NCBI GenBank assembly: GCA_037127255.1
Contig: JBANSL010000009.1
Coordinates: forward strand, 18,499,475-18,563,474
Reading direction: 5' to 3'
DNA length: 64,000 nt
Source of the DNA: Persicaria tinctoria
Taxonomy: Eukaryota > Streptophyta > Magnoliopsida > Caryophyllales > Polygonaceae
Shown: positions 1-36,566 of the stretch, one piece after another
Layout: each line of letters starts with the position of its first letter
Position numbering within the stretch: position 1 is the first letter of the stretch
Notes under the pieces: generated by a model
Databases searched by the model: none
The model's input: the letters and a program-made list of their open reading frames with translations, nothing else
What the model was told of the DNA's origin: nothing
Program-made: the position numbers and the translations under genes

Positions 1-98
1 AGGGCAACATCATCTTTGGAGATTTCAAACTACCCAATTCAAATACTAATTAGTATTTGAATTGGGTAGTTTGAAATCTCCAAAGATGATGTTGCCCT
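1..98. repeat. 98-bp perfect palindrome (foldback)
   Basis: Bases 1-49 are the exact reverse complement of bases 50-98, with no spacer. The arm runs from AGGGCAACATCATC to the centre at 49/50. The left arm is cut by the window edge, so the palindrome could be longer. It could be a foldback MITE, a young inverted duplication or an assembly fold. No protein or TIR family is attached to it. Confidence 0.9.
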
Positions 99-604
99 TA
101 ATTATTTTTTTATTATAATAATTTAACGATTAATTTATGGGTTTTATAGGCTATGTCATATTTGAAAGGATTAATTTTCAATGTATTTTTTTTGCTGAGA
201 TTTTTGAGACAACAATCAAGTGATTTTGAGACTTGAGTGGCAAACAAGGGAAGATTTGATCTACTAGCAGGGGTTTTCTTGTAATTTCATTTCACTTTTT
301 ACAAAACTCTAAGTTTGGGTGGCATCTTGTTAACAAATATGTTATAATGGGTGGTTTTGTGTAATTTTAAATTTAGTGGGTGGTTAAGTGAAAAGTGTGA
401 CATTTAATGGGTGTTTTTCTGTAAATTACCCTACTATAAATCCCTCCTATTCCTACATTGTAATTAAATAACTAGTGCACTACAGGTATGTTAGGTAGTG
501 ATTGATAAATTATTTTTTGCCATAATATTTAGTTATTTACTATTATATATAAATTTATATTTTTATATCGTAATAATATAAAAACGATCCGGACATACCA
601 GATT
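99..604. other. AT-rich intergenic DNA, no gene seen
   Basis: I see no coding frame here. Bases 300-435 repeat the motif GGGTGGTT or GGGTGTTT several times and end in TTACCCT, which looks like the end of an unclassified transposon, but I found no partner TIR. Confidence 0.5.
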
Positions 605-5052: not shown

Positions 5053-8000
5053 TTACATAGAATGTAATCGCGCTCCTGGATCATCCTGACGGATGATGGT
5101 ACAAAGATCCCTATTAAAAGGGATTGTAGATCTATCACTAATGATGCCCTTCGTGGCTATATAATCTGCAACTCTGTTCGATTCTCTGAAGATGTGTCTG
5201 AATTCAACTGATTCGAAATCTGCTCGCATGATATTGATTTCTTCTACTTGACGCATAACTTCCCATCTGATGCCTTTCCCTTGAGTAAGAGATATCATTA
5301 GCTCTTGATTATCTCCTTCTATCGTAATTTTCCGTAGTCCCATTCTTCGAGCTTGTTGCATGCCTATCTGGACGGCTGCCGCTTCAGTTTGAATAACCGT
5401 GCCTTGACTTACTTCCTGGTGAAAAATATCAATTACATGGCCCGTAGAATCACGAATGATCCCCCCCACCTGGCAGATGCCAGTGGGCTTGACAGAACCA
5501 TCTACATTAATTTTGTAGATGGTTCCTTGTGGTCTAGTCCATTTAGACATAGACCTCTTTTTTCTTTTCCTACTTTCCTTATTTTTGTCACTATTTGCCT
5601 GTCTCCAGTCTTGTATTTCTGATTTGATCTGCCTTATTAGATTCCCAAACGAGTCGGGATTTGTTTTTCTGAATATTAAATTGTTCCTAGTTTCCCAGAT
5701 CATTTGCCAAATGACCACTAGATCTTCAAAGTGATGATTTGTTTGTTTTATTAGGTCCAGATTGTCACAAAGAGGACCTTGCATAGAGAGGTTCTTAAAG
5801 AATTTACATGTAGATTGTTCATATTGCGCTATTAGCTCCTTTGCAAAGGAGCATTCTGAAAACAGATGAGCAGAGTCTTCATTACTTTGGTCGCAAAGGG
5901 AGCAAATGCTAGGTACTCTGTTGACATACCTATTTAGCCTACTAGTTGTGGGGAGGGCGTCAACTTTAATTTTCCAAACAAGATTTATGAGTCGTGGTGG
6001 AAGGTTTAGGTTCCAAATCCAGCGGTGATTGTCAGTGTTATGGTTTTGGATATTTGTAATTTTCTTCGCAGATTTAGTAGTAAATTTTCCCGTGGAATCA
6101 GGCATCCAGATTAGCCTGTCTAGAGTTTGCCAAGTTGGGATTTTGAGAGCTAGAATGCTTTTAACAATATTTTGAGGAAATAGGCGCCCTAGGAGGGGCT
6201 CATTCCAACGCTTTTGAGGAGTGAAGAGATGACAAACTTTCATATTTGGGTCATTATTACCCATCAAAGATTTGAGATTTATGTTAGGAATCCAAGGATC
6301 ATTCCAAGTATTTATGGAGAGTCCATCCCCTATAAGCCAAATGAGACCTTTTTCAAATTTATCTCTTAGGGATAATAATCTACCGAATTGCCAAGAGGTG
6401 GCCTGATTTGGTCTGTCTTTTATGCTATTATATTGCAAATATTTTTCTTTAATGACACTAACCCAGATATTATCTTCATTAGAGTAAAGTTTCCACAATA
6501 ATTTAAATTGAAGGCTTATGTTCAACTCTTCCGCTTTTCTAATCCCCATGCCACCATGGGTTTTGCTTTTACAGATGTTATCCCAGCTTATAAGAGGGGT
6601 ATATCTCTCCGTATGAAGTTTATTCCAGAAGAAGTTCTTATTTATCTGATCTATTTGGTTGAGAATACCTTTAGGGAGTAAGAAGTTCTGCATAAGATAG
6701 TTGGTTTTGGAACTGAGGTTAGCCTGAATTAGAACAGCTCTGCCTGCTTGAGAAAGATTCGACGCCTTCCATTTGGATAGGTGTTTTTTAAGGTTTTGGA
6801 TGGCCTCTTCAAAAATTGAATTTCTAATCCTGCCATTAATTATAGGGATGCCTAAGTACTTTTCAAGAGTGCTAGAGATCGGAATTCCCATGCTTCGGGC
6901 AAGATCTTTGGCTAGGTTTTGACTAACATTTTTCGAACATTGGAGAGAGCTTTTACTATAGTTAATAGTAAGACCCGAAAGGTTGGAGAAATTATTTATC
7001 ATATTCTGAATAGTATTTAGGCTAATGTGGGCAGCTTTAGCAAAAATAATTGTGTCGTCTGCAAAAGTGTGGAAAGGTATAGGATTACCGTTTCTGGTGA
7101 GTTTGATCCCGACTAGAGCATCTTCTTGCAAAGCCTCCTTGTGCATTTCTCTTGCTAGCCTTTCCATAACTAGAACAAAAATGTAAGGGGCAAGGGGGTC
7201 TCCTTGGCGGATTCCCCTATTAGGCTTGAATTGTTTACCTGGGCGGTTGTTTACTAGAATTGAGAAAGAGGACGTCGTTAAACAAGTCATTACCCAGTTG
7301 ATCCATATAGGATGAAAATCGAACCTTTGAAGAACCGCCTTGATATAACTCCAATTGATTTTATCATAAGCCTTTTTCATATCTAGTTTTAGTGCCATCC
7401 ATCCAGTTCTCCCTTTTTGCTTATGAAAGCTATGGAAGATTTCATGGGCAATTAAGGTGTTATCCTAGATGGATCTTCCTTCTACAAAAGCTCCTTGGAA
7501 AGGGTTGATGAGTTTTGGTAGAATGGGTTTCAGTCTATTTGCTAGAATTTTTGTAATTACTTTATAGATGGTATTGCATAAGCTAATCGGTATGTAATGG
7601 TTGATAGTGGTAGGGTTCTCAACTTTAGGAATTAAGGCAATAAAGGTTTTGTTTATTTCAGTTAATAATTGTCCCGAGTGAAAAAAAGCTTTTATGGCTT
7701 TGCAGCAAGATGGGCCAACTATATGCCAATATTTTTTATAAAATTCAGGAGGGTAGCCATCAGGACCAGGAGATTTGTCTTCTGCCATTTCAAATATTGT
7801 ATTTTTAATTTCTGCTATTGTAGGTTGGTTTATAAGATTTCGGTTTTCCTCAATCGTGACTTGAGGTTGAATATTCCAAACTTCTGTTGGGTTTACTTGA
7901 TGCTGGTGAGCTCCTATAAATCTTTCCGATAATTCTGTTGTGATTTGATCTGAAATGAGATCGTTATCATAGAGGATATTACCTTGTTTTGTTGTGAAAG

Positions 8001-9140
8001 ACTTTATGGGTCTTTTAGAATTTTTAACTCTAGCTGTCACCTGAAAATATTTTGTGTTTCTGTCTGAGAGTTGGAGGTGATTAGTTCTCGCCCTTTGTTT
8101 CCAAAACTTGTGGTTATATTCTAGTAATCTGAATTTTTTGTGTTCTAGCCTTGCTAGTTTTTCTTCATCCTTTTTGCTGATGTTTCCCCATGGTAAACGA
8201 CCTTGGAACGCTAGAATCTGCTTTTCTACTTGGGAGAGTTGCCTAGAGATGTTATTTGTTTGAGATTTGCACCAATTCTTCGTATTGTGTTTAAGAAGTT
8301 TCTGTTTCTGAATAAGTTTAAATCCATAAGAGCCAACAAATTTGTTATGCCAAACTTGTCGGACCATAGTTTCATAGATAGGTTTTGTAGTCCATGCCAT
8401 TTCAAACCTAAAAGGAGCACCATTGTTTTGGTTTTGGTTCCCTATTTCTAGAGAGATCGGACAATGGTCGGAGTTAGAGAAGGAATGGTGTTTTGTGTGA
8501 ATCTTTGGGAACCAATTGAAGATTTGTCGACTTGCGAGAGCTCTATCCAATCGTTCATAAGTATTATTAATATTTGTCTTGTTTTTTCTCCATGTGAAGG
8601 GAGAGCCAGTGTAGGGAACAGTCTGGAGATCAAGCTCATTCTTGACAAATTGTAAGCGTCTGAATCTGGCTATGGACGGAGTAGCTCCCCCAATCTTTTC
8701 AGAATCGTTTTCTAAATCATTTAGATCTCCAATAATAAGGATCGGAAGATTGTGTTTATGTGTAACTGAAAAAACTTCTTCCCAAAAATAGTTTTTTCCG
8801 ATTCTACGGAAGGAGCATAAACAAATAGAAGTGCCATTTCATGCTTGTCCACTATAGTTTTAATCATTATGAACCGATCTGAATGCTCAAGAATTAAGCT
8901 TAAATCTTCAAACTTTGATTTGTAAAGAAGCCAGATTCCTCCCTTGTGCCCCTTAGCATTAATACTTATTTCTTTATGGAAACCTGATGATTTAACCATC
9001 TTATCAGTTGGGGCCTCAGTGGCCTTAGTTTCAGTTAGCACAATGGCGTCTAAACGGTTAGAATCTCTAAGTTGATTTAGCTCTTGCCAAAAAAGGGGCC
9101 TTTTGGAACCCCTAACATTCCAGTATGCAATTTTAATCAT
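5053..9140 (-). pseudogene. LINE ORF2: endonuclease-RT-zinc knuckle-RNase H (broken)
   Basis: This would nick target DNA and copy the LINE RNA. Starting at 9140 (MIKIAYWNVRG, with WN and ETK endonuclease motifs), the frame shifts by one base at a short T run near 8785-8790. It then continues through the endonuclease SDHCPI motif (about 8465), the RT entry region SPGPDG, a TAG stop at 7465 where a glutamine codon would be expected, and then LDMKKAYD, RQGDPLAP and the catalytic FADD box (about 7050). A CX2C...HX4C zinc segment (about 5885-5915) follows. The C-terminal RNase H shows NVDGS, TEAAA, EGDN and VADYIA as its acidic residues. Plant L1 lineages with such an RNase H are known. About 1360 codons in all; two visible lesions only, so the copy is fairly young. 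Confidence 0.92.
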
Positions 9141-11268: not shown

Positions 11269-12270
<1,002 letters not shown>

Positions 12271-12399
12271 TATCCTTAACGTGTAAAAAAAAGCTTAAGG
12301 TGTAAAATTTCTAAATGTGTCACCCGCTTCACTATTAAGCAATTTTTAGCAAGGTTCTGGGCCAGCCCCAAAAAAATTAAAACGCTCTGTCATCTGTAA

Positions 12400-13330
12400 A
12401 TCCCTTTAGTTTTCAATCTTCTTCCTTCCATGGAGATCCTTCCTTCCTTCAATACGGTGGATCGATGGTGAGAAGTGGGGTTAGGCTTCGCATCTTTCTC
12501 TCTACTTTCATGGATCCATCGATCCTCTCTCTATTCTACAACGATACCGAGGAGAGTGGCGGATGAGCCGCTCTATCGTGAGGGCCTACTTGCATCAAGG
12601 GCAGCTTCTTCTTCTCGACATTGGCAACCATTCAAAAACCCTATTCTCGACAGAGCATGCCATCATTCACCTCTTGGGGCGATTCGTCGGACTTTCCTTC
12701 ACCCTCGATGCTAGTGTTCATCTCGTTCTCTGTTTACCCTTACCATGTTAGAGATTCATCTGAATTTTGTTCTAGAAACTCTCTAATCGGTTCAATCTTC
12801 ACTTGCCTTCATCAATTTTGTTCGCCCTCTCCATTTGCAACACTTCCCGACCCCATCTGTTCGCTTTCTTCAATCAATTAGGGCTCTCTGAGTCTCAGGT
12901 TCGTTCGTTGATTCTCTTTTGGCTCTCTTCGAATAATTATTCCTCGATTTCATCTTCTCGATGTAGTTAGGGCTCGAGCTTTGCAGTAGCATCTGACGAA
13001 TCTATAGATTGCGACTATTGTTCTGTAGTTTGAGTCTATTGAATATGTCAATGATGCAAGTCAAAAGACAGATTTTGCAGAGTCGATTGCATCCGGTGTG
13101 AGCCATATAAACCTGGTATATTAAGTTTTGAGATTTTCTTTGCTGTCCAGGAGCAGATTCTGTTTAACTTTTGAGAACAAGGATAAGCAAGTCAATTAGT
13201 TAGATCTCTAGTGAATGGCTTACCATAGTCTTTTCTACTTTAATTTTCCTGTTTATCATTCCTGATTAACCCTTGGCTTTATTGGATATAGGTGATGGGA
13301 AGGTCCTCTCCTAGTGACAAGCTTTTGCTT
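12400..13330 (+). other. 5'-UTR-like or captured gene segment, no clear protein
   Basis: A pyrimidine-rich, moderately GC-rich stretch with small overlapping frames (for example from 12475 and 12563), AGGGCTCTCTGAG- and TAGGGCTCGAG-like leader sequence, and no recognisable domain. It lies just inside the left end of element X and reads inward. It may be a captured promoter/leader or the element's own leader. Confidence 0.3.
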
Positions 13331-13479
13331 GTAAATAATCCCAAAAAACAAAACACAAAGGCAAACCAATTTATTATCAAATGGGAATCTGCAGAAATGG
13401 CAATAGCCCAAAGTAGAGAAGTATTTCAACTCTGAGTGTTTACCGTGTCAATCATCTGGGTAATCAACTTTGAGTCCTC

Positions 13480-13790
13480 ACTTTTGGTTTTTGCCAGCTA
13501 GCTTGCGGAAAATGAGAGCAAAAGTTGATTTCACGATCTTCCAAGGATGGAAAATCACCCCCAATCTTCTGAAGCTGGGGCAAGTTCCATAGCTATAGGT
13601 ACTGTAAGCTGCGCAGAGATGGCAATGTTGATGATGATGGCCCCGCAGAGTCAAACACGGCTATTAGCTGATCACAGGACCTGATTTCGAGTCTTTGGAG
13701 ATTTTCTGGAAGCATCGATGAAGAGAGAACATGCGTCAACTTTGGGCCGGAGACTTTCCTTCCCTTTTTTCCAGAGAATATCAATGTGTG
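13480..13790 (-). pseudogene. NLR (NBS-LRR) leucine-rich-repeat fragment
   Basis: On the minus strand a frame reads LPENLQRLEIRSCDQLIAVF, then LPSLRSL, a TAG stop, then LWNLPQLQ...DFPSLED. This order (LP.NLQ.L.I..C..L, LPSL..L..L.LWNLP.L, FPSLE) is characteristic of the LRR region of CC-type plant disease-resistance proteins, where LRRs recognise effectors. No NB-ARC motif (P-loop, GLPL, MHD) is visible nearby, and the frame ends soon after with another stop. It is a short relic inside element X, either captured by it or an older gene remnant. Confidence 0.6.
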
Positions 13791-14456
13791 GTAGGCTAGT
13801 TTGGTGAAGAAATTCAGTAGATAAAACTTTACTCAAGGGTTTGAATGTGTTATATTTGTGGTTGCCTTTGAATTGTATTTGCTTGATATGGACTTTTTGG
13901 TTAAATTTCAAGTTTAGTTCTTAGATATACTTCAATACGATTAGAGTATCTTCTTGACTTTTCTTTTCATGTTGCTCTTTGCTTTGGGGAAGATGGACTA
14001 GATATATGTACAATCACTTATATGAAATTGCTTGATTTACTTGTGTTTGATTGATTACTTAATCTTAGTTTCTTAAAATCTCCAGAGTTGCATATTTTCT
14101 GTAATTGTGAGCAAATCAAAATACTTTTGGTTCAACCGTTTGATTATGTGAAGTGCAAATTGCTCTGTTCAATCCCTTACATCGATCCTCCATGCTTCTT
14201 TTATAAAATCTTTTTAATGCTGCTTGTTATTCAGGGCTACTTGATCTAACTATGTAATAGTCTTTGTTTATCTTTTCCACATTGTCCTGCTTAAGCCTTT
14301 TGAAGTTTTGTACTAAAGCCTATTAGCTCAAAATGGGAGAGCAATGTGTCTACGCACAAATATGCGGATTTAAACCCCGTATAGGCTATCTATATGGTAT
14401 CTCTTATTATGTTTCTCTTCGTGAATAGTATCAGGTGCAAAAATAAAATTATAATG

Positions 14457-14585
14457 TGCAGTTGTGCAACTGTGAAGTGCATTTGTGCAACTGTGAAGTG
14501 CATTTGTGCAACTGTGAAGTGTATTTGTGCAACTGTGAAGTGCATTTGTGCAACTGTGAAGTACATTTGTGCAACTATAAGATAA
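14457..14585. repeat. Six 21-bp tandem repeats, CATTTGTGCAACTGTGAAGTG
   Basis: Near-perfect tandem copies with unit CATTTGTGCAACTGTGAAGTG. Because 21 is divisible by three, frames stay open on both strands and would give heptapeptide repeats. This is the most homogeneous part of the larger array. Confidence 0.95.
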
Positions 14586-15733
14586 TAAAGTGCAAAAATA
14601 AAACTGTAATGTGCACATTTAGAGTACAAGTGTGCAAAAGTAAGATTCAATTGTGCAGATTTAAACTACAATTGTGCAAAAGTAAGATACAATTGTACAC
14701 ATTTAGAATACTTTGAGTAGGCGGAACCATTCTTTTTTTTTCCTTCTCCACATTCTTACCGGCAGGAATTTGCCTATGATTTTTTCAACTTATATTTTTA
14801 TATAGAAAAATCTTCTTATTTCTTCACCGCGGGTTCTCGCGATTCAATTGTGCAGATTTAAACTACAATTGTGCAAAAGTAAGATACAATTGTGCAAATT
14901 TATAATACAAGTGGGCAAAAGTAAGATACAATATGTGCAAATTTAGAATACAATTGTGCAAAAGTAAGATACAATATGTGCAAATTTACAATACAATTGT
15001 GCACTTTTAAGCATTGTAATATGAATTTTAAGCACTTCAACTTTTAGTTTGAATGTGCACTTTTAGTTTCAAAAAGTGCAAATATAAAAATTAAATGTGA
15101 AATTTTAGTTTCAAAAAGTGCAAATATAAAAATTAAATGTGCAATAAAGAACGAATCTTGACAAGCAATGTGTATAGGTTGATCACTGAAGATGGATGCT
15201 TGAGTTGATCAGTGAAGACGAATGCTTGTAAATAAAGAATAAATCTTGACAAGCAATGTGTATAGGTTCTGGTGGTGTTTACGGTGTTAACCACCACTCG
15301 GCATCGATGCTCTCCAGTTCCAACTTCCTCTACAACTGGTTGAAACCTTACTCTCCTATTTCAGCTTAACCCCATTATGACTTTATGCCCAATCTAACGT
15401 AGATATTGATATCAAATATCCATCTCAGTCTATTGAGGTATACAATTGCCATGGCTCAAAATTTTAGTTTTGTAATTTCCTCCTCTCTTTGGACTTTAGA
15501 AGTGCATATTATGGATTTTTTTCCTGCTCAGTCTATTGACATGTCTGTTAGGTTAACAATAAGCAAATCATCAGTCCAATTTCACATGTAACTGAAGCCA
15601 TAACTGATTCTTACAGTGCAGACTGCTATATTATATACATTACAAAGATAAGACATTAAAGTGCATAATTAAGATTAAAAAGTGCATTATTTAGTTTAAA
15701 ACGTGCATAAATAAGATTATAATGTGCATGATT

Positions 15734-15839
15734 AACAATTTGAGATTGTTGTGTTCTTGTTTATGATATAACCTATGTGGGATTCGAACCCACATCTTTG
15801 TGCATACGCACATTGCTCTTCCAATTAGGCTAATAGGCC
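15734..15839 (-). promoter_or_regulatory. End A of unit 1: tRNA-like domain with pol III B box
   Basis: Read on the minus strand: acceptor GGCCTAT/ATAGGTT pairs (two G-U), D stem, a hairpin TGTGC-GTAT-GCACA where the anticodon arm should be, a T arm GTGGG/CCCAC and an exact B box GGTTCGAATCC. The A box TAGCCTAATTGG is slightly off consensus. A second small hairpin, AACAAT-loop-ATTGTT (15734-15750), follows. Transcription, if any, would run into the array. This is not a functional tRNA, because it has no 7-nt anticodon loop. Confidence 0.65.
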
Positions 15840-16455
15840 AAAAATATTCTATCAAAGTGCTAAGAAAGAATCAAGCACATAAGTAGTGTTTTTCTTTTAT
15901 GAATCGGGCATTAATAAACTCTGATTATCATTTCTAAAATAAAATAAAAAAATGTGCCATCTGATTTCCCTAAATCAAACAGCCCAGCTATGCTCTATCA
16001 AAGAAACCATCCTACTAGGAGTCACAACAATCTAGCAACTATCAAGAGCATCAAGAGACACAAATTCACTAACTAAACATACCTCCTACCCTAAATGAAT
16101 ACAGCAGACTACTAAAAGCCATAAATACTGATAATGGGTTGTGGATACTTCAATTCAAACAAGACCCCCAATGAGCTACCTTTGCACAAGGCAAGAATAT
16201 TATCAAAGATTTGCAGTAAAGAAAATGTTTTTTTTTAAATCATATTTATACTAGCAATACTCTCAAAGCGCTGCCATTAAGCACATAAATTTGAAACCAC
16301 CCGAGATCACATTTACAACATAATCAATTGAATGTTAAGCTGAACAGTACAACACTAAAGCAGCCACTGAAGATGACCCCCGGGAGGGCACCAATACATC
16401 TTTACTATTTGCTCAATGTACATGGTTAAACAGAAGTACATAATGAGGCAATTAA

Positions 16456-19665
<3,210 letters not shown>

Positions 19666-19670
19666 ATTAA

Positions 19671-20200
19671 GCACATCCAATTCATTCTAGACACTTTTCC
19701 AGATTCACTATCGCCATAAGCAAGCTAAATTGTAACAGAAAAATAGATACTTCAATTATCCACACTAAACCAATTCAAAAAGAGAGTGATAGAGCAAGGT
19801 TTCAGCAATATATAACCAAAGCAACTTTTATATCTGTTACTTGTAACTGTATAAGCAATCACTGCATTGCACAAAACAAATTGAAATCATCTTCACATCA
19901 TTTTAGCTTATTCACCTCAATTGTTGATTCATCACAACAAATCAACCTCTAACACCACACACAATGATAGGACATGTAGGTCTTCATATATCAAATTATC
20001 GCAGCATATGGTTTACACACAACACAGAATTAGTAAGGAAATCTTGAACAGATGTCCAATTTAAGGAATCAAATGCCAAATCGGCAAACCCTAAACCTTA
20101 ATTCTAATGTATAGGTTCACAAATTCTAGAAGCAATTAACACCGAATAAGCAAGAAATTTTCTCCTATCGATATTCAATTCAATACGCATCATATATATC
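19671..20200. other. Non-coding interior of element X
   Basis: AT-rich DNA between the giant LTR and the GC-rich right-end segment. No frame, motif or repeat is recognised. Confidence 0.5.
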
Positions 20201-20700
20201 TATACAGATTCTAGAAGCAAAATAAACTCACCTCCAATCCGGAGGAGTAGTAGAAACGCTGACAGAGGCAGCGGAGGGGAGAACAGATCGAGAAATTGAA
20301 GGCTTCAAATGCTCGAACATAGATCAATGCGACCAACTTTTTCTGCCTCTATAGGCGGAGCAATTGAAGGCGGAGCAAAGTTGGATCTGGTAAGGAATCT
20401 AACCAGATCTGAGATCCATCGTCCTCTCCGCTGAAGCGCTTCTCGCTCTCAGGCTCTTAGCATCACTGGCTTCCAATTGGTGCTCGGATCCGCCGCTCAT
20501 CGAGAAAGGAGGAGACGGGACACTGCTCAGCGAGAAGGAGAAGAGGAGACGCTCTCGGCTTCCAACCGATGAGGATGATGAGAAGGTCGGGGCGGCGGAT
20601 GGAGGCGAGGAGGCCGACCATGGCGGAGATGGAGGCAGACAGATCTGAATGAGAAATGCGTCCCAGCGAGAGGAGGAAGAATGTGTTATTTTGGCCGGTT
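20200..20700 (-). other. 5'-leader/first-exon-like segment at the right end of element X
   Basis: On the minus strand a CT-rich leader precedes an ATG near 20621 with a short frame (MVGLLASIRRPDLLIILIG...) that stops after about 50 codons. A donor-like GGAGGTGAGTTT follows near 20231, leading into AT-rich DNA. This looks like the first exon of an unknown transcript reading inward from the TIR. I cannot name a product. Confidence 0.3.
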
Positions 20701-20820
20701 CAACACCGGTTCAGTTTTTTTTTTAATAAATCCCACCCGCGTCCTGGTTTCCATTAAAAAAATAAATTTTACACGTTAAGCCAATTTTACACGTTAAGGA
20801 CTTTTTACATTTTAAAGCTT

Positions 20821-20822
<2 letters not shown>

Positions 20823-20864
<42 letters not shown>

Positions 20865-21168
20865 ATTGACTCCGGTGAAAACATCAAATTGTGGTAAAAA
20901 CCGTGAGGACTACTTTATAACTTGGTTTATTTGAAACCTATGCTAAAAACCTCAATCACACGGTGACTTTACAACTCGGTTCAACCTAAAAACCGTGCTA
21001 AAAACTCCAATTTTAAAATTACACATGACTTTATAGTTCGGTCAAGCCTAAAAATCGTGCTAAAAACTCATATTTTAAAATTACATAGTGACTTTATAGC
21101 TCGATTTTATTCAGAACCGGGCTAAAATTTGTGACTTTATAGATCGGTTCTATTTATATATATATATA
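20823..21168. repeat. 63-bp tandem repeats between two (TA)n tracts
   Basis: (TA)n at 20823-20862, then four to five degenerate repeats with GACTTTATAGNTCGGTT near their starts (20964, 21027, 21090, 21133; spacing 63, 63, 43) and CCTAAAAACCGTGCTAAAAA inside, then (TA)n at 21154-21168. The left end (GGGATTGACTCCGGTGAAAA, with GTGGTAAAA 18 bp later) resembles the 18-bp subrepeats of elements X and Y. Confidence 0.8.
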
Positions 21169-21745
21169 GGGTGAGGTTAAAGTGAAAAGGGGGCTTAAGA
21201 TGAAAATAATGCTTAAAGTGAAAAAAAACATACCGCGTGTAGAAGCAAGCAACGCTCTCGGACTCCCGCACCCACACCCACCTCGAGCCACCTCCGGCCA
21301 CCAGCGACCAGCCGCCCTCGAGCCCACCGCTGTGCGCACCCCCGAGCCCAGACCTGGCCCTGTTCGAGCCACCCCCGAGCCCAAACGTGGCCCTGTTCGA
21401 GCCACTTGTTCGCGCCCACCAGCAGCTTCGTTGTCGGCCTCCCACACCGCCCCACGAGCCACCTCCGGCCACCAGCCACCACCTGCTCGAACCCCCTCCC
21501 TCAGCCGCACCCCCCGAGACCGGAACCCACATGGTTCGAGCCCAGCCGAGCTCACACCGAGCCTATCTCCCCCATAAGTGTTGTTCGACATTTTTGGCTC
21601 GAAATACCTTCGAAATCCCGATTTTGCTCCTTGTTTCAACTCGAATTTGGTATGATTTCTATCCCTAAACTTGTTTATTACAATTGTTTAGATTGTTTGA
21701 ATGATTTAGGTTGAGATTGAAAACCTAGGGTTTGATTTAGGAGCG

Positions 21746-22224
21746 GAATTTGGGGCTTTTTGCCAAAAGCCAAATTGATTGAAATTGATGATATGGTTGT
21801 GTTGTTGGGTTGAGTTTGAGCTAATTTCATGTTCATATAATTGTCAAATTGTTTATAGATCATTAGCTAATTGGATTTTAGAATTTCATAGTGCGATATG
21901 CTTTAGAATTTGGGGCTTTTTTCCAAAAGCCAAATTGATTGAAATTGATGATATGGTTGTGTTGTTGGGTTGATTTGGAGCTAATTTCATGTTCATAGCA
22001 TTGTCAAATTGTTTATGGATCATGATTTAATCGGATTTTAGAATTTTATTGCGATATATTTTAGAATTTGGGTTTTTTTTGCCAACATCCAAATTGATTG
22101 AAATTGATTATATGGTTGTGATGTTGGGTTGATTTGGAGCTAATTTCATGTTCATAGCATTGTCAAATTGGTTGTAAATCATGAGCTAATTGGATTTTAG
22201 AATTTTGTTGCGATATGCTTTAGG
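21746..22224. repeat. Three tandem copies of a 159-bp repeat
   Basis: Copies begin GAATTTGGG at 21746, 21906 and 22064 and share CAAATTGATTGAAATTGAT and GAGCTAATTTCATGTTCATA. They show few differences and no coding content. They lie immediately left of the tRNA-ended unit. Confidence 0.9.
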
Positions 22225-22264
22225 TCGATTAGGTTCTTCTATTTTAGTATGAAAATCATAATTT

Positions 22265-22372
22265 AGCCTATTAGCTCAATTGGTAGAGCAATGTGCGTTT
22301 GCACAAAGATGTGGGTTCAAATCCCACATAGGTTACATAATAGACAAGAGCGCAACAATCGCAAATTGTTAA
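22265..22372 (+). promoter_or_regulatory. End A of unit 2: tRNA-like domain with intact A and B boxes
   Basis: Acceptor AGCCTAT pairs with ATAGGTT, the D stem is GCTC/GAGC, and the T arm is GTGGG-TTCAAAT-CCCAC. The A box TAGCTCAATTGG and B box GGTTCAAATCC match the RNA polymerase III consensus. The anticodon arm is replaced by TGTGC-GTTT-GCACA. A small hairpin, AACAAT...ATTGTT, follows at 22354-22370. A T4 run near 22415 could end a transcript of about 150 nt. Pol III use is inferred. Confidence 0.65.
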
Positions 22373-22983
22373 TCATGCACGTTATAATCTTAGTTATGCA
22401 CAAATGTATACTACTTTTGCACAATCCTATCTTACCTTTGCACAATTGTATTATTAGATATGCACAACATAATGTTACATTTGCAAAACATAGTGTTATA
22501 TTTCCACAACTTAAAGTTATATTTTGCACAATATAATGTTATATTCGCACAACATAATATTATATGTGCACAACGTAACATTATATTATTAGATATGCAC
22601 AACATAATGTTACATTTGCAAAACATAGTGTTATATTTGCACACCTTAAAGTTATATTTGCACAATATAATGTTATATTCGCACAACATAATATTATATG
22701 TGCACAACGTAACATTATATTATTAGATATGCACAATATAATGTTACATTTGCAAAACATAGTGTTATATTTGCACAACTTAAAGTTATATTTGCACAAT
22801 ATAATGTTATATATGCATTATATCATCTTATTTGTGCACATTATTATTTTATTATTGCACTTTATAATCTTATTCATGAACGGGAACACAAAAAAAAGCA
22901 ACCATAAATAGCTTATGCGGGATTTTGAACTCGAACCTTTGTGCATGTGCACATCACTATACCATTTTTTGAGCTAATATGCT
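22265..22983 (+). mobile_element. tRNA-ended TGCAC-array unit, copy 2 (719 bp)
   Basis: End A (22265-22335, plus strand) and end B (22910-22983, minus strand) are inverted tRNA-like domains. Between them are about 22 units of 21 bp, consensus GCACAACATAATGTTATATTT, organised into three higher-order copies of 134-135 bp (marker TTATTAGATATGC at 22451, 22586, 22720). The orientation is opposite to the copy at 14317-15839: the end A sequences agree beyond the tRNA-like part (CAACAATC-CAAATTGTTAATCATGCAC in both), and the end B sequences resemble each other. No protein gene. Confidence 0.8.
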
Positions 22984-23339
22984 TTTAATGGCACATGTTG
23001 CATTAAAGTACAAAACTGTCATAAAATAGCGGTCCATAAAGAAATTTTTTTGTATGACACATTATGAAAATGCACATTTATTAATAATAACATTTATTGT
23101 ATTATTTGTTCACTTTATATTTTGTAATCTCATCTTTTTCCCTTTTTAAAATAAAGACAAAAACTGTAATGTAACATTCTTGTTGTATTTTTTTAATATT
23201 ATAGTTGCACCTAACAATATTATTTCAAATAAAAATTACGGGCTAAAATCTGTAATTTTCATAATTGAAATAAGGGCAATATTCGTATGAATGGAAAGTT
23301 TGGGGAGGCGTGTGAAATTTACCCCATAATTAGGGTCAT

Positions 23340-23535
23340 TTAACCATTTTCCCATTTACTCATAAAATTAGGCACATTTACACCAAAATTATGCCCATTT
23401 ATTCATTACTCATTTAATTAGGCTCATTTACACCAAAATTAGGCCCATTTATTCATTATTCATTTAATTAGGTCCATTTACATTTAAATTAGGCCCATTT
23501 ACATCCAAATTAGACTATTTTCACTTTAAAAAGGA
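23340..23535. repeat. Short degenerate repeats AATTAGGCCCATTTACACC
   Basis: Seven or so copies of AATTAGGCCCATTTACA or its ATTCATT variant, about 21-27 bp apart, just inside the right TIR of element Y. Confidence 0.8.
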
Positions 23536-23746
23536 TTTTCATCTTAAGCCCCATTTTCATTTGAACCTTTACCTATATATATATATATATATATTAGTGC
23601 TAGTGTACTCACAAATCCGGGGAGTTGATTGATTTAAATGGATGGTTGTGATTATTATACATTTTTTTTTTAATTCAGAACCGATGGGGCCCACTGACTG
23701 TTTTGAGTCACTTGTCCATGTGGATGGAGTGTGATTGTGTGAACAC

Positions 23747-26741: not shown

Positions 26742-29700
26742 TTAGGTCGGGTCGGCCACAGCAGAAGCCCTTCCTAGCGCATCCTTTCGGACGAGAACAA
26801 GTAGTTCTGGATCATCCTCACAGCAATCGTCGGCAGGGCATGCATGGGCACTACGAGCAAGGTAGTCAGCCACGACATTTGATTCCCTGAAAATATGACG
26901 AATAGCAACATAAGAAAAGGACGAAATATCTAACAAAATATCTGATTGTAGCAGCTCGATCGTCCAGGGGCATATCCAAACCCCCAGTAAAGCCTTTATT
27001 ACCAGTAAGTTGTCCCCTTCGATCTGAAGGTTTAAGATCTGCAATTCCTTAGCACGTAAAATACCCATTTTGAGGCCTAGGTTTTCAGCAAATACAACGG
27101 AGACATTGTTGCAAATAGCCCGATGTAAAGACACAACCACACCCCTAGAGTCACGAATGACAAATCCATAAGACGACGATCCGTCCGGCATAACTGAACC
27201 GTCGAAATTTAGTTTGTAGCAATCTATAGGAGTCTTGTCCCATTTCCCGGAGCGTTGCCGAGTACGGCCGGCATGATCGACCAAATGAGCGCTCGGACGA
27301 GCAGAACGACAATCACCACTCCGACCAGTTATCGCAGTAATGGGGAGATCGTCCTCCAGTCTCTTTGTTTGTTTCCAGCAATGAGTACTTGTGGTATAGA
27401 GTAGAATTATTTCATTTATAGTTACTTTATTTGTGTGGTTAAACACTAATTGGTTTCTGAAAAACCACAAGGCCCACCATGCTGAGGCTAGCTCAATAAA
27501 AGATTTGATACCAATAGCCTTTTTGATATCAGTAAGTGGCAGAACAATACCTACTCCGACACTCACCGCAAGATCCCTCGGAATTCGGATATGTAAAGCT
27601 TGTAAAAGATTGGTCACCATAGGGCACTCAAAGAAAAGGTGAGCCACCGATTCACAAGAGTTAGCACAGAAGGCACAACCAGACGGCACGGCCACATGTG
27701 ATTTTTGTAATCTGAGAGTAGTTGGAAGACCATCACGAGAGATTTTCCAAAGAAAATGACGTACTTTAGGTGGCACGTCCAGATCCCAAATCCAACTGCA
27801 GTCGAAAGTGGTCGACCCAACATGTTCTGATAGTAACGAGTTTGCAGAGCTGGTTGAAAACCGGCCATTATTGCTTGGACCCCAATAGAGACGATCTGTC
27901 ATTGGATTATTAGGCAGAGTGATACTCATAATTAAGTCAATGTCTTCTTTAGACAGAATATTTGTTAAAGAGTTGTTTATTAATGGTTTGTTCCACTGAC
28001 TTTCTGTGTTGATGAAATAAGACACCTTTATACCCTTTAGGGCTTCCGATATAGGTTGCAAAATTATGGAATTTAATGGTTTTAAGAAGGCCCAGTTATG
28101 AGACCAGAAGTCAATGGTCTGACCATTTCCAACACTCCACTGAAGGGCTTGTTGGAATTTAGGTCTGATAGGCATAAGACGATTCCACTTCCAAGATGAA
28201 AGACCTTTTTTCTAGTAGTTGAGCAGGTCGTGCCCTTTAAGATATTTGTGTGAGACTAAACGGACCCAGATGTTGTCTGGTTCTGAAATAATCTTCCATA
28301 GAAGCTTCATTTGCAGTGCTATGTTCATAGACTCAGCTTTATGGATACCAAGACCCCCTTCCATTGTATCTGAGCAGATTTTATCCCAGCTAATAAGCGG
28401 TGTAGCTTTGGTACTTTTGTTCCAAAAGAACTGCCTGTAAACTTTGTCAAGCTCATGAAGAATATGTGATGGAAGTAAGAAAGCTTGCATTAGAAAAATC
28501 GGTTTCGCACTGAGATTTGCTTTAATAAGGACCTTACGTCCTTCTGCAGAAAGGTTCGAAGCTTTCCATTCAGTTAGTTGTTGTTTCGTCTTGAGGACGA
28601 CCTCGGCGAAGGTATCCCTATTAGTTTTACCATTCACTATAGGGTAACCAAGATATTTATCGAAATTATTCGCTTGCGAAATACCAAGCACAGCGATTGT
28701 AGCCGTAATAGCAGTTGTAGACGTGTTAGGTAAAGCTTGGAAGCTGGATTTATGCAGATTGACCTTTTGGCCTAAGATTAGACAGTATCGATCTAAAATG
28801 GACAACACGGATGTGCAAGCTGAATGTGAAGCTTTACAGAAAATAAGAATATCATCTGCAAAGGCCAGGAACGGAACCTTAAGCCCCGAGCGGCCGAAAG
28901 AGATGCCAAGATCCGAATTCACTTGCCCATGATGATGCAGAGTACGTGCAAGTACGTCATAAGCTAAAATAAAGAGGAACGGAGACAGAGGATCTCCCTG
29001 TCTAAGCCCCCTAGATGGTTCTATGAGTGTGGTTGGCTCATCGTTGACTAATATCGAGTAAGAGACTGTAGAAACACATTCCTTAATACAACTGATAAAG
29101 AAGTTGTTAAACCCAAATTTGGCCATAACTTGGAATAGAAAAGACAACTCAATACGACCGTAAGCCTTTTCCATATCCAATTTCAAAGCAACCATCCTCG
29201 CTCGGCCTTTCTTAAGCCAAAATGAGTGCAAAGCTTCATGGGCTATAAGGATATTATCCTGAATTGATCTCCCTTTTGTGTAAGCTCCCTGTAATGGGTG
29301 AATCAATTTGTCGAACATCTTGGTTAGCCTAGCTGAAATAACTTTCGCTATAATTTTATAGATCGTAGAGCACAAGCTGATGGCCCTGTAATGGTTGACC
29401 GTAGAGGGCTCATCACATTTCGGTAGTAAGGTTATAAACGTATGATTGATCTGTCGTAAAAGTCTACCGCTAGTAAAGAAATCCTTTACTGCCTTCACAA
29501 CAGAAGGGCCCACAGTTGGCCAAAACTTTTGATAGAAACCAGCCGGGAAACCATCTGGGCCTGGGGCCTTATCTGGGCTCATAGAGAAAACTGCAGCTTT
29601 AATCTCATTGTTGGTCACGGGGGCTGATAACATGTCATTGTCTGCTTGAGAAACCAAAGTCGGGATAACTACTAAGTCTAAAGACAGATCAGGCCCACCC

Positions 29701-30945
29701 CCCGGGGTAGACCTGAACCTCGATTTAAAATCTTTAACAAACTCTTGTTGAATGATATGAAAGTCAGCCGACGACCCACCATTTAGGAGTGAAATAGACT
29801 GGATCAGTTTCCGGGCTCGTTTGGCCGTAGCTATCTTGTGAAAGTAGCTGGAGTTGGAGTCATTTAATTTGGCATGTTTTACTTTGGCCCTTTGGCTCCA
29901 GTAATGTCGGTGGAAATCCAACATACGTTCTCTCTTATTTAGCAGTTGTTTTAGAATTTGAATATCATTTGTATTATAATTGGTAATTAACGAAGTTTGT
30001 AATTGAAGAAGCTTTTGGTCCGTGAGCTGAATCTGGTTGTTAATGTTGCGAAAAGTCTTCTTGTGCCAAGTTTTGGAAAGGTTCTTTAGTAATTTCGCCT
30101 TTTGTACCAGTTTGAACATAAGGCAACCTTGAGAATCCAAACGCCAAGCTTGCGAAACCAGATTTCTATAATCGGCTCTGGAAGCCCATGCCAGTTCAAA
30201 CTTGAACGGTCTACTTTTAGGTTAGATATTGTGACGGAAATCAGTAGAAATTGGTGCATGATCAGACCTAGTGAACGGATGAATCTGAGTTCGAAGAGAA
30301 TCAAATATCGTTAATACGTCCGAGTGGATAAGTAGACGATCCAGTCTCTCAAGACAGGTAACAACACCATTATGTTTACGTTGCCACGTAAACTGACCCC
30401 CGTAAGATGGTATATCGAGCAACGAGAGGTTTCTCTTTAAGTCATTTAAGCGATTGAATCTCGCCGCTGAGGGATAAACCCCTCCTTGTTTGTCCGCCGG
30501 GGAACATATTTCATTTAGGTCTCCCATGATACAGAAGGGAATGAGTAAGGTTTTAATGTAAGTAGAGAGAGAATCCCAAAAGCTTGATTTTCGTCATTCG
30601 TCCGGTGGGACATAAACTACCAGGAACACGACACTCCGATGGGAGAAAAGTCTGAATAGTTAAAATGGATGAAATGATGGTTAACCGAAATGAGATCTAT
30701 AGAGCCCTAGGAGGAGGGGATATCCTTCCAAAGTAGGCAAATACCACCAGAAAATCCGGTTGCCGGATCAAAAGCAATGTTTGTGAACCCACATTTACGC
30801 CAGACCCCTTCAGGAGGAACTTTATTTGTCTTGGTTTCTAGCATAGCCAGAACATTGATATTATTGTTTTTACAGAAAATATCGACATTTGTCCAGAAGT
30901 TACGGCTCTGAATACCTAGGGAGTTCCAAGTATATATATATATTC
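26742..30945 (-). pseudogene. LINE ORF2: endonuclease-RT-RNase H (broken)
   Basis: The endonuclease start is eroded (LAMLETKT and GGICLLWK near 30740-30870, frame disturbed near 30640-30670), then continues as MGDLNE...LERLDR...RSDHAPIS (30527-30230). From 30527 onward everything is in one frame, interrupted by TAA at 30222 and TAG at 28212. The RT carries SPDKAPGPDGFP, LDMEKAYG, RGLRQGDPLSPF and FADDILIF (about 28850). A zinc segment CAFC...HLFFEC lies near 27630-27680. The RNase H has NFDGS, AENLG, EGDN and VVADYLA (to about 26850). It is the same domain order as the LINE at 5034 but a divergent family. Confidence 0.92.
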
Positions 30946-35531: not shown

Positions 35532-36566
35532 TAAGGTTGTTATATGAGCTGAACAACTCGAGCTCGGCTCGAAAAAAGCTCGACTCGAGCTCGTTCACTT
35601 ACCTAAACAAGTCGAGCATGAACATGATTTTAAGCTCGGTTGAAAGCTCGGCTCGTTCAATTTAGGCTCGAATAGCTCGAATTCTATGGAATTTCTAAAA
35701 TTTTCTTTAAGTTAATATGTTATAACCAAATAAAACTACTTAAAGCTCGAAAAAAGCTCGGTTCGAGCTCGTTCATTTACTAAAACAAGCCGAGCTTGAA
35801 CAAAAAAGAAAGCTCGTTTAAAAATTGGGCTCGGCTCGTAGGGATGGCAATGGGTCGGATGATGGGTGGATGATCTACTTCCGTCACCCGACCCACCATC
35901 CAAAATCCTTCACCCTACCCGACCCATCACCCACCAAATATTTCACCCACCCCGTCCACCCATCATCCACCGGGTGATCGGGTGGATCGGGTGATAATTT
36001 GGGTGAAATACAAGACATCAAATTCATTAAGAAAAATTATTGAAAAATATACGTCGAACACATCGACGAATAAGCAAGTATCAAATATAGTCAAATTCGG
36101 TCAAATACGTGTAAACATCCACAACTTTCAACACTTCAAGCTATAGAAAACATTACAACAATTATGAATAAAAAGAAGAGAAAACATAATCTTCAACGAC
36201 CAAAGCCTTCAAGCTCGAAATCATTTATAGGTAACTTGAATTAGGGTTTATGTGGGCATATTAGTAATTTCACATATAAAATATAATTATATAATATAAG
36301 TCGGGTGACGGATCGGGTGATGGGTCGGGTCACGGGTGGGGAATGTCTTCACCCGAATCCGACCCGACCCATCACCCGTTCACCCATCACCCATTTAATA
36401 TCCACTTTATTTCGGATTTTCACACACTTTTTCGGATCGGATGAGACGGATATCCGTCGGGTGCGGGTGAAATTGCCATCCCTATCGGCTCGGCTCGAGC
36501 TCGTTTAACAAATGAACAAGCTTGAACATGCCAAGCTCGGCTCGTTCGGCTCGAATAACACCCCTA
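35532..36566. mobile_element. hAT element nested inside 35292-37146 (TSD CTTGTAAT)
   Basis: Ends TAAGGTTGTTATATGAGC and GCTCGAATAACACCCCTA are inverted with mismatches. The duplication CTTGTAAT is at 35524-35531 and 36567-36574. Both subterminal zones repeat GCTCGAGCTCGGCTCG-like motifs. Confidence 0.9.
35839..36484. mobile_element. hAT element, innermost of the triple nest (TSD TCGGCTCG)
   Basis: Ends TAGGGATGGCAAT and ATTGCCATCCCTA are perfect inverted repeats. The duplication TCGGCTCG is at 35831-35838 and 36485-36492. The subterminal motif is GGGTGATGGGTCGGG/CACCCGACCC. No transposase. Confidence 0.93.

What the first reader, a model, noticed from the sequence alone, without database searches (positions are those of the whole stretch)
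22265..22983. Array element bounded by inverted tRNA-like domains (two copies, opposite orientation)
22265-22983 and 14317-15839 share one architecture: a tRNA-like domain at each end, inverted relative to each other, enclosing TGCAC-centred repeats of about 21 bp. The ends are distinguishable: end A (22265 and, reversed, 15839) matches for 120-130 bp past the tRNA part, and end B (22983 reversed and 14317) matches separately. This makes the pair a defined element family rather than two chance tRNA relics. I know of no named plant element with tRNA-like TIRs around a minisatellite.
Basis: partly seen in the sequence, partly recalled or inferred. Interest (0 to 1): 0.88.

Follow-up and report, generated by a model that had tools for sequence, protein, structure and literature searches.

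The report
tRNA-like cassette inside microsatellite-targeting jumping genes
Two inward-facing tRNA-like sequences around a short-repeat array form a cassette that recurs in this (likely plant) genome inside larger transposons bordered by TA-type repeats, which likely carry it when they move; in the five lineages compared, one tRNA-like end is better conserved than the transposons' own ends, so it likely does something for them.

Summary
In detail: E1 (22265-22983) and E2 (14317-15839) each have two inward-facing tRNA-like heads around ~21-bp TGCAC repeats, with distinct A and B ends, and recur genome-wide. A free-standing element with tRNA-like termini is not supported: both lie inside terminal-inverted-repeat (TIR) transposons bordered by dinucleotide microsatellites (21169-23573; 12250-20823) that resemble SaTar/MuTAnT Mutator-like elements. 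In five lineages with both outer ends read, the A end faces one TIR type (TTAAA[A/G]T), the B end the other (TTCAAAT); a sixth showed no TIR within ~5 kb. No cassette-free site (one host tested) and no target duplication of 7 bp or more were found. The A head is more alike between lineages than either TIR in 10 of 10 pairs (means 90% against 77% and 70%), but by only 1-8 points over the A-side TIR among the four E2-type lineages. Heads have a shortened anticodon arm with no anticodon triplet; A-like heads keep a Pol III B box (23 of 24). Best reading: an inherited internal module, a predicted Pol III tRNA-like unit with a decaying inverted partner. Function and mobilisation by a MULE transposase are inferred. 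The paper searches found no description.

The parts
22265..22983 (+). cassette E1 (A head - TGCAC array - inverted B head)
22265..22335 (+). E1 A head, tRNA-like, 54.2 bits
22336..22418 (+). E1 A trailer to the first TTTT (22415-22418): predicted end of a ~154-nt Pol III transcript
   Evidence: sequence, alignment; transcription not shown
22397..22873 (.). E1 array, ~21-bp TGCAC repeats
22910..22983 (-). E1 B head, degraded tRNA-like domain
14317..15839 (-). cassette E2 (A end at 15839, B end at 14317)
15769..15839 (-). E2 A head, tRNA-like, 43.0 bits
15698..15768 (-). E2 A trailer to the T-run (AAAA on + at 15698-15701): predicted end of a ~142-nt transcript
   Evidence: sequence; transcription not shown
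14456..15145 (.). E2 arrays of TGCAC repeats (14456-14711, 14845-15010, 15052-15145)
14317..14388 (+). E2 B head
21169..23573 (.). outer TIR transposon carrying E1, between (TA)7 and (TA)10
21169..21233 (+). A-side TIR of the E1 outer transposon
23504..23573 (-). B-side TIR of the E1 outer transposon
12250..20823 (.). outer TIR transposon carrying E2, between (AT)n(AG)n and (TA)19; includes a later insertion at 16456-19665
12250..12320 (+). B-side TIR of the E2 outer transposon
20757..20823 (-). A-side TIR of the E2 outer transposon

Best explanation
The feature is a conserved internal cassette, two inward-facing tRNA-like domains around a TGCAC minisatellite, lying inside terminal-inverted-repeat transposons bordered by microsatellites, and it likely spreads as part of those transposons, which are likely non-autonomous Mutator-like (SaTar/MuTAnT-type) elements, rather than on its own. 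Shown: the nesting in outer TIRs, the same polarity of cassette against outer TIRs in the five lineages read at both ends, a shortened anticodon arm in A and B heads alike (14 nt in all 47 distinct heads, 13 nt in three further B heads), and a higher identity of the A head than of either TIR in all ten lineage pairs. Inferred: a MULE transposase acting in trans at the outer TIRs moves the whole unit into (TA)n tracts. Predicted, untested: the A end is a Pol III transcription unit (A box, B box, T-run about 140-154 nt in) whose TFIIIC/Pol III occupancy keeps the transposon's interior open and so favours its mobilisation; the B end would be a decaying inverted copy of it, and the array between them a site where transposons exchange flanks (one recombinant, H69, seen).
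For: Outer TIRs: 74-bp arms, 85% complementary, around E1; (TA)nGG junctions and HMM hits on both sides of E1, E2, G3, G4 and H69 (the HMM was built from TIRs of E1, E2, G3 and H69, while both G4 ends and the B ends of G3 and H69 were new to it). Polarity: A-side TIRs read TTAAA[A/G]T and B-side TIRs TTCAAAT in 5 of 5 lineages; of 49 segments 18 show a TIR beside a cassette, and there 13 of 13 A-side TIRs type as A and 15 of 16 B-side as B, 1 untyped (TTGAAATG) (the typing rule was made after seeing the five, and copies of one family are not independent). Identity, mean of 10 lineage pairs: A head 90%, A trailer 88%, B head 77%, A-side TIR 77%, B-side TIR 70%, outside stretches 55-61% against shuffled 47-52%; the A head exceeds both TIRs in 10 of 10 pairs. 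Structure: 95.8% of 336 cells form standard pairs in 16 chosen heads; 2 pairs have double changes. B box exact in 23 of 24 distinct A-like heads (two of these sit at the B end of G3) and 13 of 23 B-like heads. T-run at one alignment position in 7 of the 8 A ends. H69 joins the E1-type A flank (91%) to the E2-type B flank (97%) through a cassette. A copy on C8 carries K+ transporter (PF02705) fragments between its heads, as Pack-MULEs carry gene pieces (recalled).
Against: Homology between E1 and E2 stops within 3 bp of the tRNA-like ends, as for an inserted unit. Seven of the 8 A ends outside the E1/H69 flank type share a further ~16 bp upstream (as in TAGAATATTTTT) with different sequence beyond, also insertion-like. 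By eye, sister copies of E1 hold GCATGAAAAT and GCATTAAAGT (8 of 10 alike) some 8-16 bp outside the two heads, which an insertion reading could claim as a decayed duplication. Among the four E2-type lineages the A head exceeds the A-side TIR by only 1-8 points (means about 88% and 84-85%); the large gap comes from the E1 pairs, whose TIRs may have been swapped. E1 and H69 share the A flank but have different TIR types, so TIRs or flanks have been exchanged and the polarity agreement between the two TIR types is close to a single coin toss. One lineage with about 5 kb of flank on each side (L67) has no TIR there, and 31 of 49 segments show none, mostly with 1.5 kb of flank. Two of the ten A ends (L043, G5) have diverged trailers and were left out. 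The count of double-change pairs does not exceed control (a) (152 of 500 shuffles reach it), and eight A ends show none. No transposase, target duplication of the outer element or transcript was examined. High A-end identity could reflect gene conversion.
Confidence: 0.64

Rival explanations
1. A free-standing element with tRNA-like terminal inverted repeats that has inserted into several MULE-like transposons and was then copied with them.
For: E1 and E2 homology ends at the tRNA-like domains; several different flanks; ~16 bp shared beyond 7 of 8 A heads, then different sequence; an imperfect 8-of-10 repeat near the E1 borders.
Against: No exact shared word of 7 bp or more at the borders of 23 pairs; no empty site for the E2 host among 43 matches; same polarity against the outer TIRs wherever both could be typed; five of the six lineages with 4-5 kb or more of flank lie inside TIR pairs, L67 being the exception.
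Confidence: 0.19
2. A passive passenger: an ancestral transposon captured a tRNA gene or SINE once, duplicated it inverted, and the cassette has been copied since without function; its similarity reflects recent exchange between transposons through the array.
For: Flank exchange is seen (H69); 10 of 23 distinct B-like heads lack the B box; among E2-type lineages the A head is little more conserved than the A-side TIR; MULE-type elements are known to capture DNA (recalled).
Against: The A head exceeds both TIRs in 10 of 10 pairs while the flanks beyond ~25 bp are near shuffled level except in the two flank-sharing pairs; A-like heads keep the B box in 23 of 24.
Confidence: 0.32
3. A retroposed SINE-like dimer: Pol III RNA from the A head copied by a LINE.
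For: tRNA-like head with internal promoter boxes.
Against: The RNA predicted from A ends at a T-run ~140-154 nt in and would not contain the B end; no duplication of 7 bp or more at the cassette ends.
Confidence: 0.04
4. Chance tRNA relics beside unrelated minisatellites.
For: None beyond the abundance of tRNA pseudogenes in plants (recalled).
Against: Shared shortened anticodon arm, paired inverted ends, distinct A and B ends, dozens of copies.
Confidence: 0.01

Closest known systems
SaTar elements of guayule, rice, sorghum and citrus (PMC5907723)
   Same: Non-autonomous TIR elements bordered by (TA)n and other microsatellites, often in linear, non-nested arrays; the window has such a row (12250-20823, 20862-21154, 21169-23573).
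   Different: The guayule families are about 0.4-1.7 kb; the main text has 0 hits for tRNA, minisatellite, tandem repeat and internal repeat.
MuTAnT of Medicago, with maize TAFT and rice Micron as cited there (PMC4486113; the name Micron is recalled)
   Same: TIR elements inserted in TA microsatellites; a run of G at the TIR tip.
   Different: No tRNA-like cassette mentioned (tRNA 0 hits); TIR sequences were not compared beyond the printed search mask; a link to a MULE transposase was not tested here.
Pack-MULEs (recalled)
   Same: Gene fragments carried inside a TIR element (K+ transporter pieces in the C8 copy).
   Different: The constant part here is non-coding and tRNA-like.
tRNA-derived SINEs (recalled)
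   Same: tRNA-like head with A and B boxes.
   Different: Two inverted heads, no target duplication seen at the cassette ends, inside a DNA transposon.
Minisatellite-bearing MITE of Porphyromonas gingivalis (PMC4596501, title and start of abstract in a search listing only)
   Same: A tandem array inside an inverted-repeat element.
   Different: tRNA-like ends are not mentioned in what I saw.

Membership tests
TA-microsatellite MULE (SaTar/MuTAnT/TAFT) for the outer transposons | Terminal inverted repeats | tested here: met
   both TIRs found around E1, E2, G3, G4, H69; not found around L67
TA-microsatellite MULE (SaTar/MuTAnT/TAFT) for the outer transposons | Insertion in (TA)n or other microsatellites | tested here: met
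   dinucleotide tracts directly outside the TIRs of all five lineages
TA-microsatellite MULE (SaTar/MuTAnT/TAFT) for the outer transposons | 8-11 bp target duplication in copies outside microsatellites | not tested
   no such copy was fetched; inside (TA)n it cannot be read
TA-microsatellite MULE (SaTar/MuTAnT/TAFT) for the outer transposons | TIRs shared with an element coding a mudrA-like transposase | not tested
   not searched; genome searches did not complete
TA-microsatellite MULE (SaTar/MuTAnT/TAFT) for the outer transposons | Linear arrays of non-nested elements | tested here: met
   window row 12250-20823 / 20862-21154 / 21169-23573; facing TIRs across a shared (TA)n in L062, L074 and H69
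Free-standing MITE/TIR element with tRNA-like TIRs | Target duplication at the tRNA-like ends | tested here: not met
   longest exact shared word 5-6 bp, or none of 5, in 23 pairs (sister copies among them; two with damaged ends); an imperfect 8-of-10 repeat near E1 seen by eye
Free-standing MITE/TIR element with tRNA-like TIRs | Empty sites | tested here: inconclusive
   0 of 43 matches span the E2 junction, 40 of 168 candidates scored; the E1 test did not complete
tRNA-derived SINE | Internal Pol III promoter (A and B box) | tested here: met
   A-like heads: strict A box 18 of 24, B box 23 of 24; B-like heads: strict A box 0 of 23 (longer D-loop), B box 13 of 23; promoter activity not tested
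tRNA-derived SINE | Variable target duplications | tested here: not met
tRNA-derived SINE | A-rich or LINE-like 3' tail | not tested
   no dedicated search was made; none was noticed
Functional tRNA gene | 7-nt anticodon loop with a triplet | tested here: not met
   anticodon arm 14 nt in all 47 distinct heads (44 fit a strict pattern, 3 by eye) and 13 nt in the B heads of L035, L067, L068; ARAGORN assigns no isotype to the window heads

The most novel reading that the evidence does not exclude
A lineage of TA-microsatellite-targeting DNA transposons has adopted a tRNA-mimic gene transcribed by Pol III as its most conserved part: while captured host DNA turns over on both sides, the tRNA-like unit is kept because its RNA or its TFIIIC-bound DNA is needed for the transposon to escape silencing or to move.
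Probability: 0.25. Interest if true: 0.85.

Novelty: new variant of a known kind. Interest (0 to 1): 0.58.

Why it matters
Non-autonomous DNA transposons are usually thought to need only their ends (established knowledge). Here an internal, tRNA-like module is kept, at an identity above that of the ends in the five lineages compared, while most of the sequence around it differs, which would point to a second cis requirement. If the Pol III reading holds, it gives a testable link between Pol III/TFIIIC occupancy and the mobility of microsatellite-targeting MULEs, for whose insertion only speculative models are offered (PMC5907723, Discussion, part read).

Tried and rejected
Considered and rejected: chance tRNA relics; SINE dimer; a free-standing MITE (no duplication of 7 bp or more at the borders). 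The IMG/VR pattern scan for the head gave 8 contigs; in six ARAGORN calls a tRNA at the match and in two none, so it gave no relative. A first identity table with free end gaps had shuffled baselines of 71-75% and was replaced. The Rfam microRNA hits lie below gathering score and were ignored. The LRR (E 0.0033) and KH (0.022) Pfam hits in the E2 transposon are below cut-off and are not claimed.

No description of such a cassette turned up in the paper searches; the library lacks most subscription papers. Papers: PMC5907723 abstract and outline, section 13, part 1 of 2 of section 16, and a word search; PMC4486113 part 1 of 4 and passages of a word search; PMC2820488 passages only; the rest as listing rows.

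Limits: loci were gathered mostly with whole-cassette queries, so pairing counts are not a census. G3, G4, H69 and L67 were chosen for their differing flanks. Of the 86 full heads (47 distinct), one search used 16 chosen ones; of the 10 A ends, one search used 8, leaving out L043 and G5, whose trailers have diverged. The classes A-like and B-like are best matches; two of the 24 A-like heads sit at the B end of G3. Only 40 candidates are scored per genome search. On checking, confidence was lowered slightly (0.66 to 0.64; novel case 0.28 to 0.25; interest 0.60 to 0.58) because the identity gap between A head and A-side TIR is small among the E2-type lineages.

Full report
What was checked. The window lies in a 1.68-Gb assembly with open frames that look like LINE and Copia proteins (recalled resemblance), so it is likely a plant. 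At 22265-22983 (E1) and 14317-15839 (E2) the described anatomy is present. The A heads score as tRNA in Rfam (54.2 and 43.0 bits). The B heads are not called as tRNA but align with the A heads and form the inverted arms. The arrays have period 21. The A ends match each other well past the head and the B ends match each other separately. Nothing outside the cassettes matches below E 0.01 in the stretches compared.

Genome copies. The first look gave 2489 candidates for E1 and 4018 for E2, of which 40 each were scored. The 40 scored E1 candidates, the window's own included, cover at least 717 of 719 bp at 98-100%. The flanks are shared too: the 7 other fetched E1 copies are alike for at least about 470 more bases on each side. 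The nearest E2 copies likewise share flanks, while others (L023, L025, L026, L032, L035, L037) share only the cassette or part of it. So both cassettes are inside larger repeats.

The larger repeats. Around E1 are 74-bp inverted arms, 85% complementary, at (TA)n borders: a TIR element at 21169-23573. Around E2 the shared repeat begins at 12249-12250 beside a dinucleotide tract, and a TIR of the same kind faces it at 20823, giving 12250-20823. An HMM of these TIRs also found both ends around three other cassette lineages, G3 (C19), G4 (C14) and H69 (C14), all bordered by TA tracts; some of these ends had been used to build it. No TIR was found within about 5 kb of a further lineage, L67, and 31 of 49 segments show none beside the cassette, mostly with 1.5 kb of flank. 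Elements of this kind, bordered by microsatellites and lined up without nesting, are described as SaTar and MuTAnT and assigned to Mutator-like elements (PMC5907723, PMC4486113). I tested neither the transposase link nor a 9-10 bp duplication, so the MULE assignment is by resemblance.

Polarity. The TIR outside the A end carries TTAAA[A/G]T near its tip and the TIR outside the B end TTCAAAT, in all five lineages, though the E1 TIRs are only 62-67% like the others. In 18 segments with a TIR beside a cassette, 13 of 13 A-side and 15 of 16 B-side TIRs agree; one is TTGAAATG; one of the 16 is counted from an A head alone (S31); four more TIRs belong to neighbours without a head in the stretch. The rule was set after seeing the five, and many of these copies are sisters. 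Because H69 shares its A flank with E1 but its TIR type with E2, exchange has happened, so the agreement between the two TIR types is weaker evidence than five independent cases.

Signs for and against independent insertion. In 23 printed pairs, sister copies included, the longest exact word shared across the borders was 6 bp. By eye the E1 borders of sister copies hold an imperfect 8-of-10 repeat 8-16 bp outside the heads, and 7 of 8 A ends outside the E1/H69 type share ~16 bp beyond the head and then differ; both could be read as traces of insertion. The joined-flank search for E2 returned 43 matches (40 of 168 candidates scored), none crossing the junction by more than 2 bp. The same search for E1 did not complete.

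The tRNA-like domain. 86 full-length heads gave 47 distinct ones, 24 A-like and 23 B-like by best match; two of the 24 sit at the B end of G3. All 47 have a 14-nt anticodon arm: a strict pattern fits 21 of 24 and 23 of 23, the three others have a stem change at the same length. The B heads of L035, L067 and L068, not in that set, have 13 nt. A tRNA has 17 (established knowledge). This shared shortening makes it likely that A and B heads are copies of one ancestor and leaves no place for a triplet anticodon. In 16 chosen heads 95.8% of 336 cells pair (shuffled mean 94.5%). Two pairs show double changes, a number that 152 of 500 shuffles reach; the covariation score was reached by 0 of 500, and the slid controls fell far below. 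Those heads are related, so this is suggestive only. Folding eight A ends gives the cloverleaf and two hairpins in the trailer, with no double change.

Conservation. Over ten lineage pairs the mean identity is 90% for the A head, 88% for the A trailer, 77% for the B head, 66% for the B trailer, 77% and 70% for the A-side and B-side TIRs, and 55-61% in four stretches outside the cassette against 47-52% shuffled; the outside means are raised by the two pairs that share a flank, E1-H69 on the A side and E2-H69 on the B side. The A head exceeds both TIRs in 10 of 10 pairs. The excess over the A-side TIR is 26-28 points in pairs with E1 and 1-8 points among the other four lineages, so much of it rests on E1, whose TIRs may have been exchanged. 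Two A ends outside this set, L043 and G5, have diverged trailers. A-like heads keep the B box in 23 of 24, and a T-run stands at one alignment position in 7 of the 8 A ends; E1 has its T-run about 12 nt later.

How it most likely works. Shown: cassette in one polarity within TIR transposons bordered by microsatellites, and one case of exchanged flanks. Inferred: the outer TIRs are what a transposase uses, and the cassette travels along. Predicted: the A end is transcribed by Pol III into an RNA of about 140-154 nt, and Pol III/TFIIIC occupancy of the A end helps the element stay accessible. The B end, its box lost in 10 of 23 distinct heads, is likely a decaying partner. The array would serve as a recombination bridge. 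A passive passenger kept alike by exchange remains a serious rival.

Other content. One copy on C8 has two pieces of a K+ transporter gene (PF02705; E 3.6e-27 and 1e-17) some 450 bp apart between its heads, as expected if gene fragments are captured inside these elements.

Verdict. The outer transposons resemble a known kind; a tRNA-like core was not found described in the searches listed under Tried and rejected.

Noticed in passing
window 16456-19665: A 3.2-kb insertion in the E2 outer transposon starting TGTAA and ending TTACA, with ATTAA on both sides (16451-16455 and 19666-19670); L021, L022 and L027 show the empty site. It looks like an LTR or solo LTR.
   Followed up: partly
window 20862-21154: A third TA-bordered repeat (starts GGGATTGACTCCGG) between the two outer transposons; a relative lies beside the E2-type copy in L075. 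Beyond the TA tracts no inverted pair was found for it.
   Followed up: partly
C8:49734364-49735245 (L053): K+ transporter (PF02705) gene fragments between the two heads of a cassette.
   Followed up: yes
C4:22265332, 22269295, 22273267: Three E2-type B flanks spaced about 3.97 kb apart: perhaps a tandem array of cassette-bearing units.
   Followed up: no
L040 and L024/L060: Two B heads in the same direction in one stretch, so heads also occur as direct repeats.
   Followed up: no
window 22265-22983 and 14317-15839: The anticodon-arm half TGCACAAA of the heads resembles the core of the 21-bp repeat (TTTGCACAA), so the array may derive from the head.
   Followed up: no
window 1-106 and 36303-36394: Foldbacks that match microRNA precursor models below gathering score; perhaps MITE-like.
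   Followed up: no
window 5053-8550 and 26742-30140: Open frames that look like non-LTR retrotransposon proteins with RNase H-like ends (recalled resemblance, not tested).
   Followed up: no
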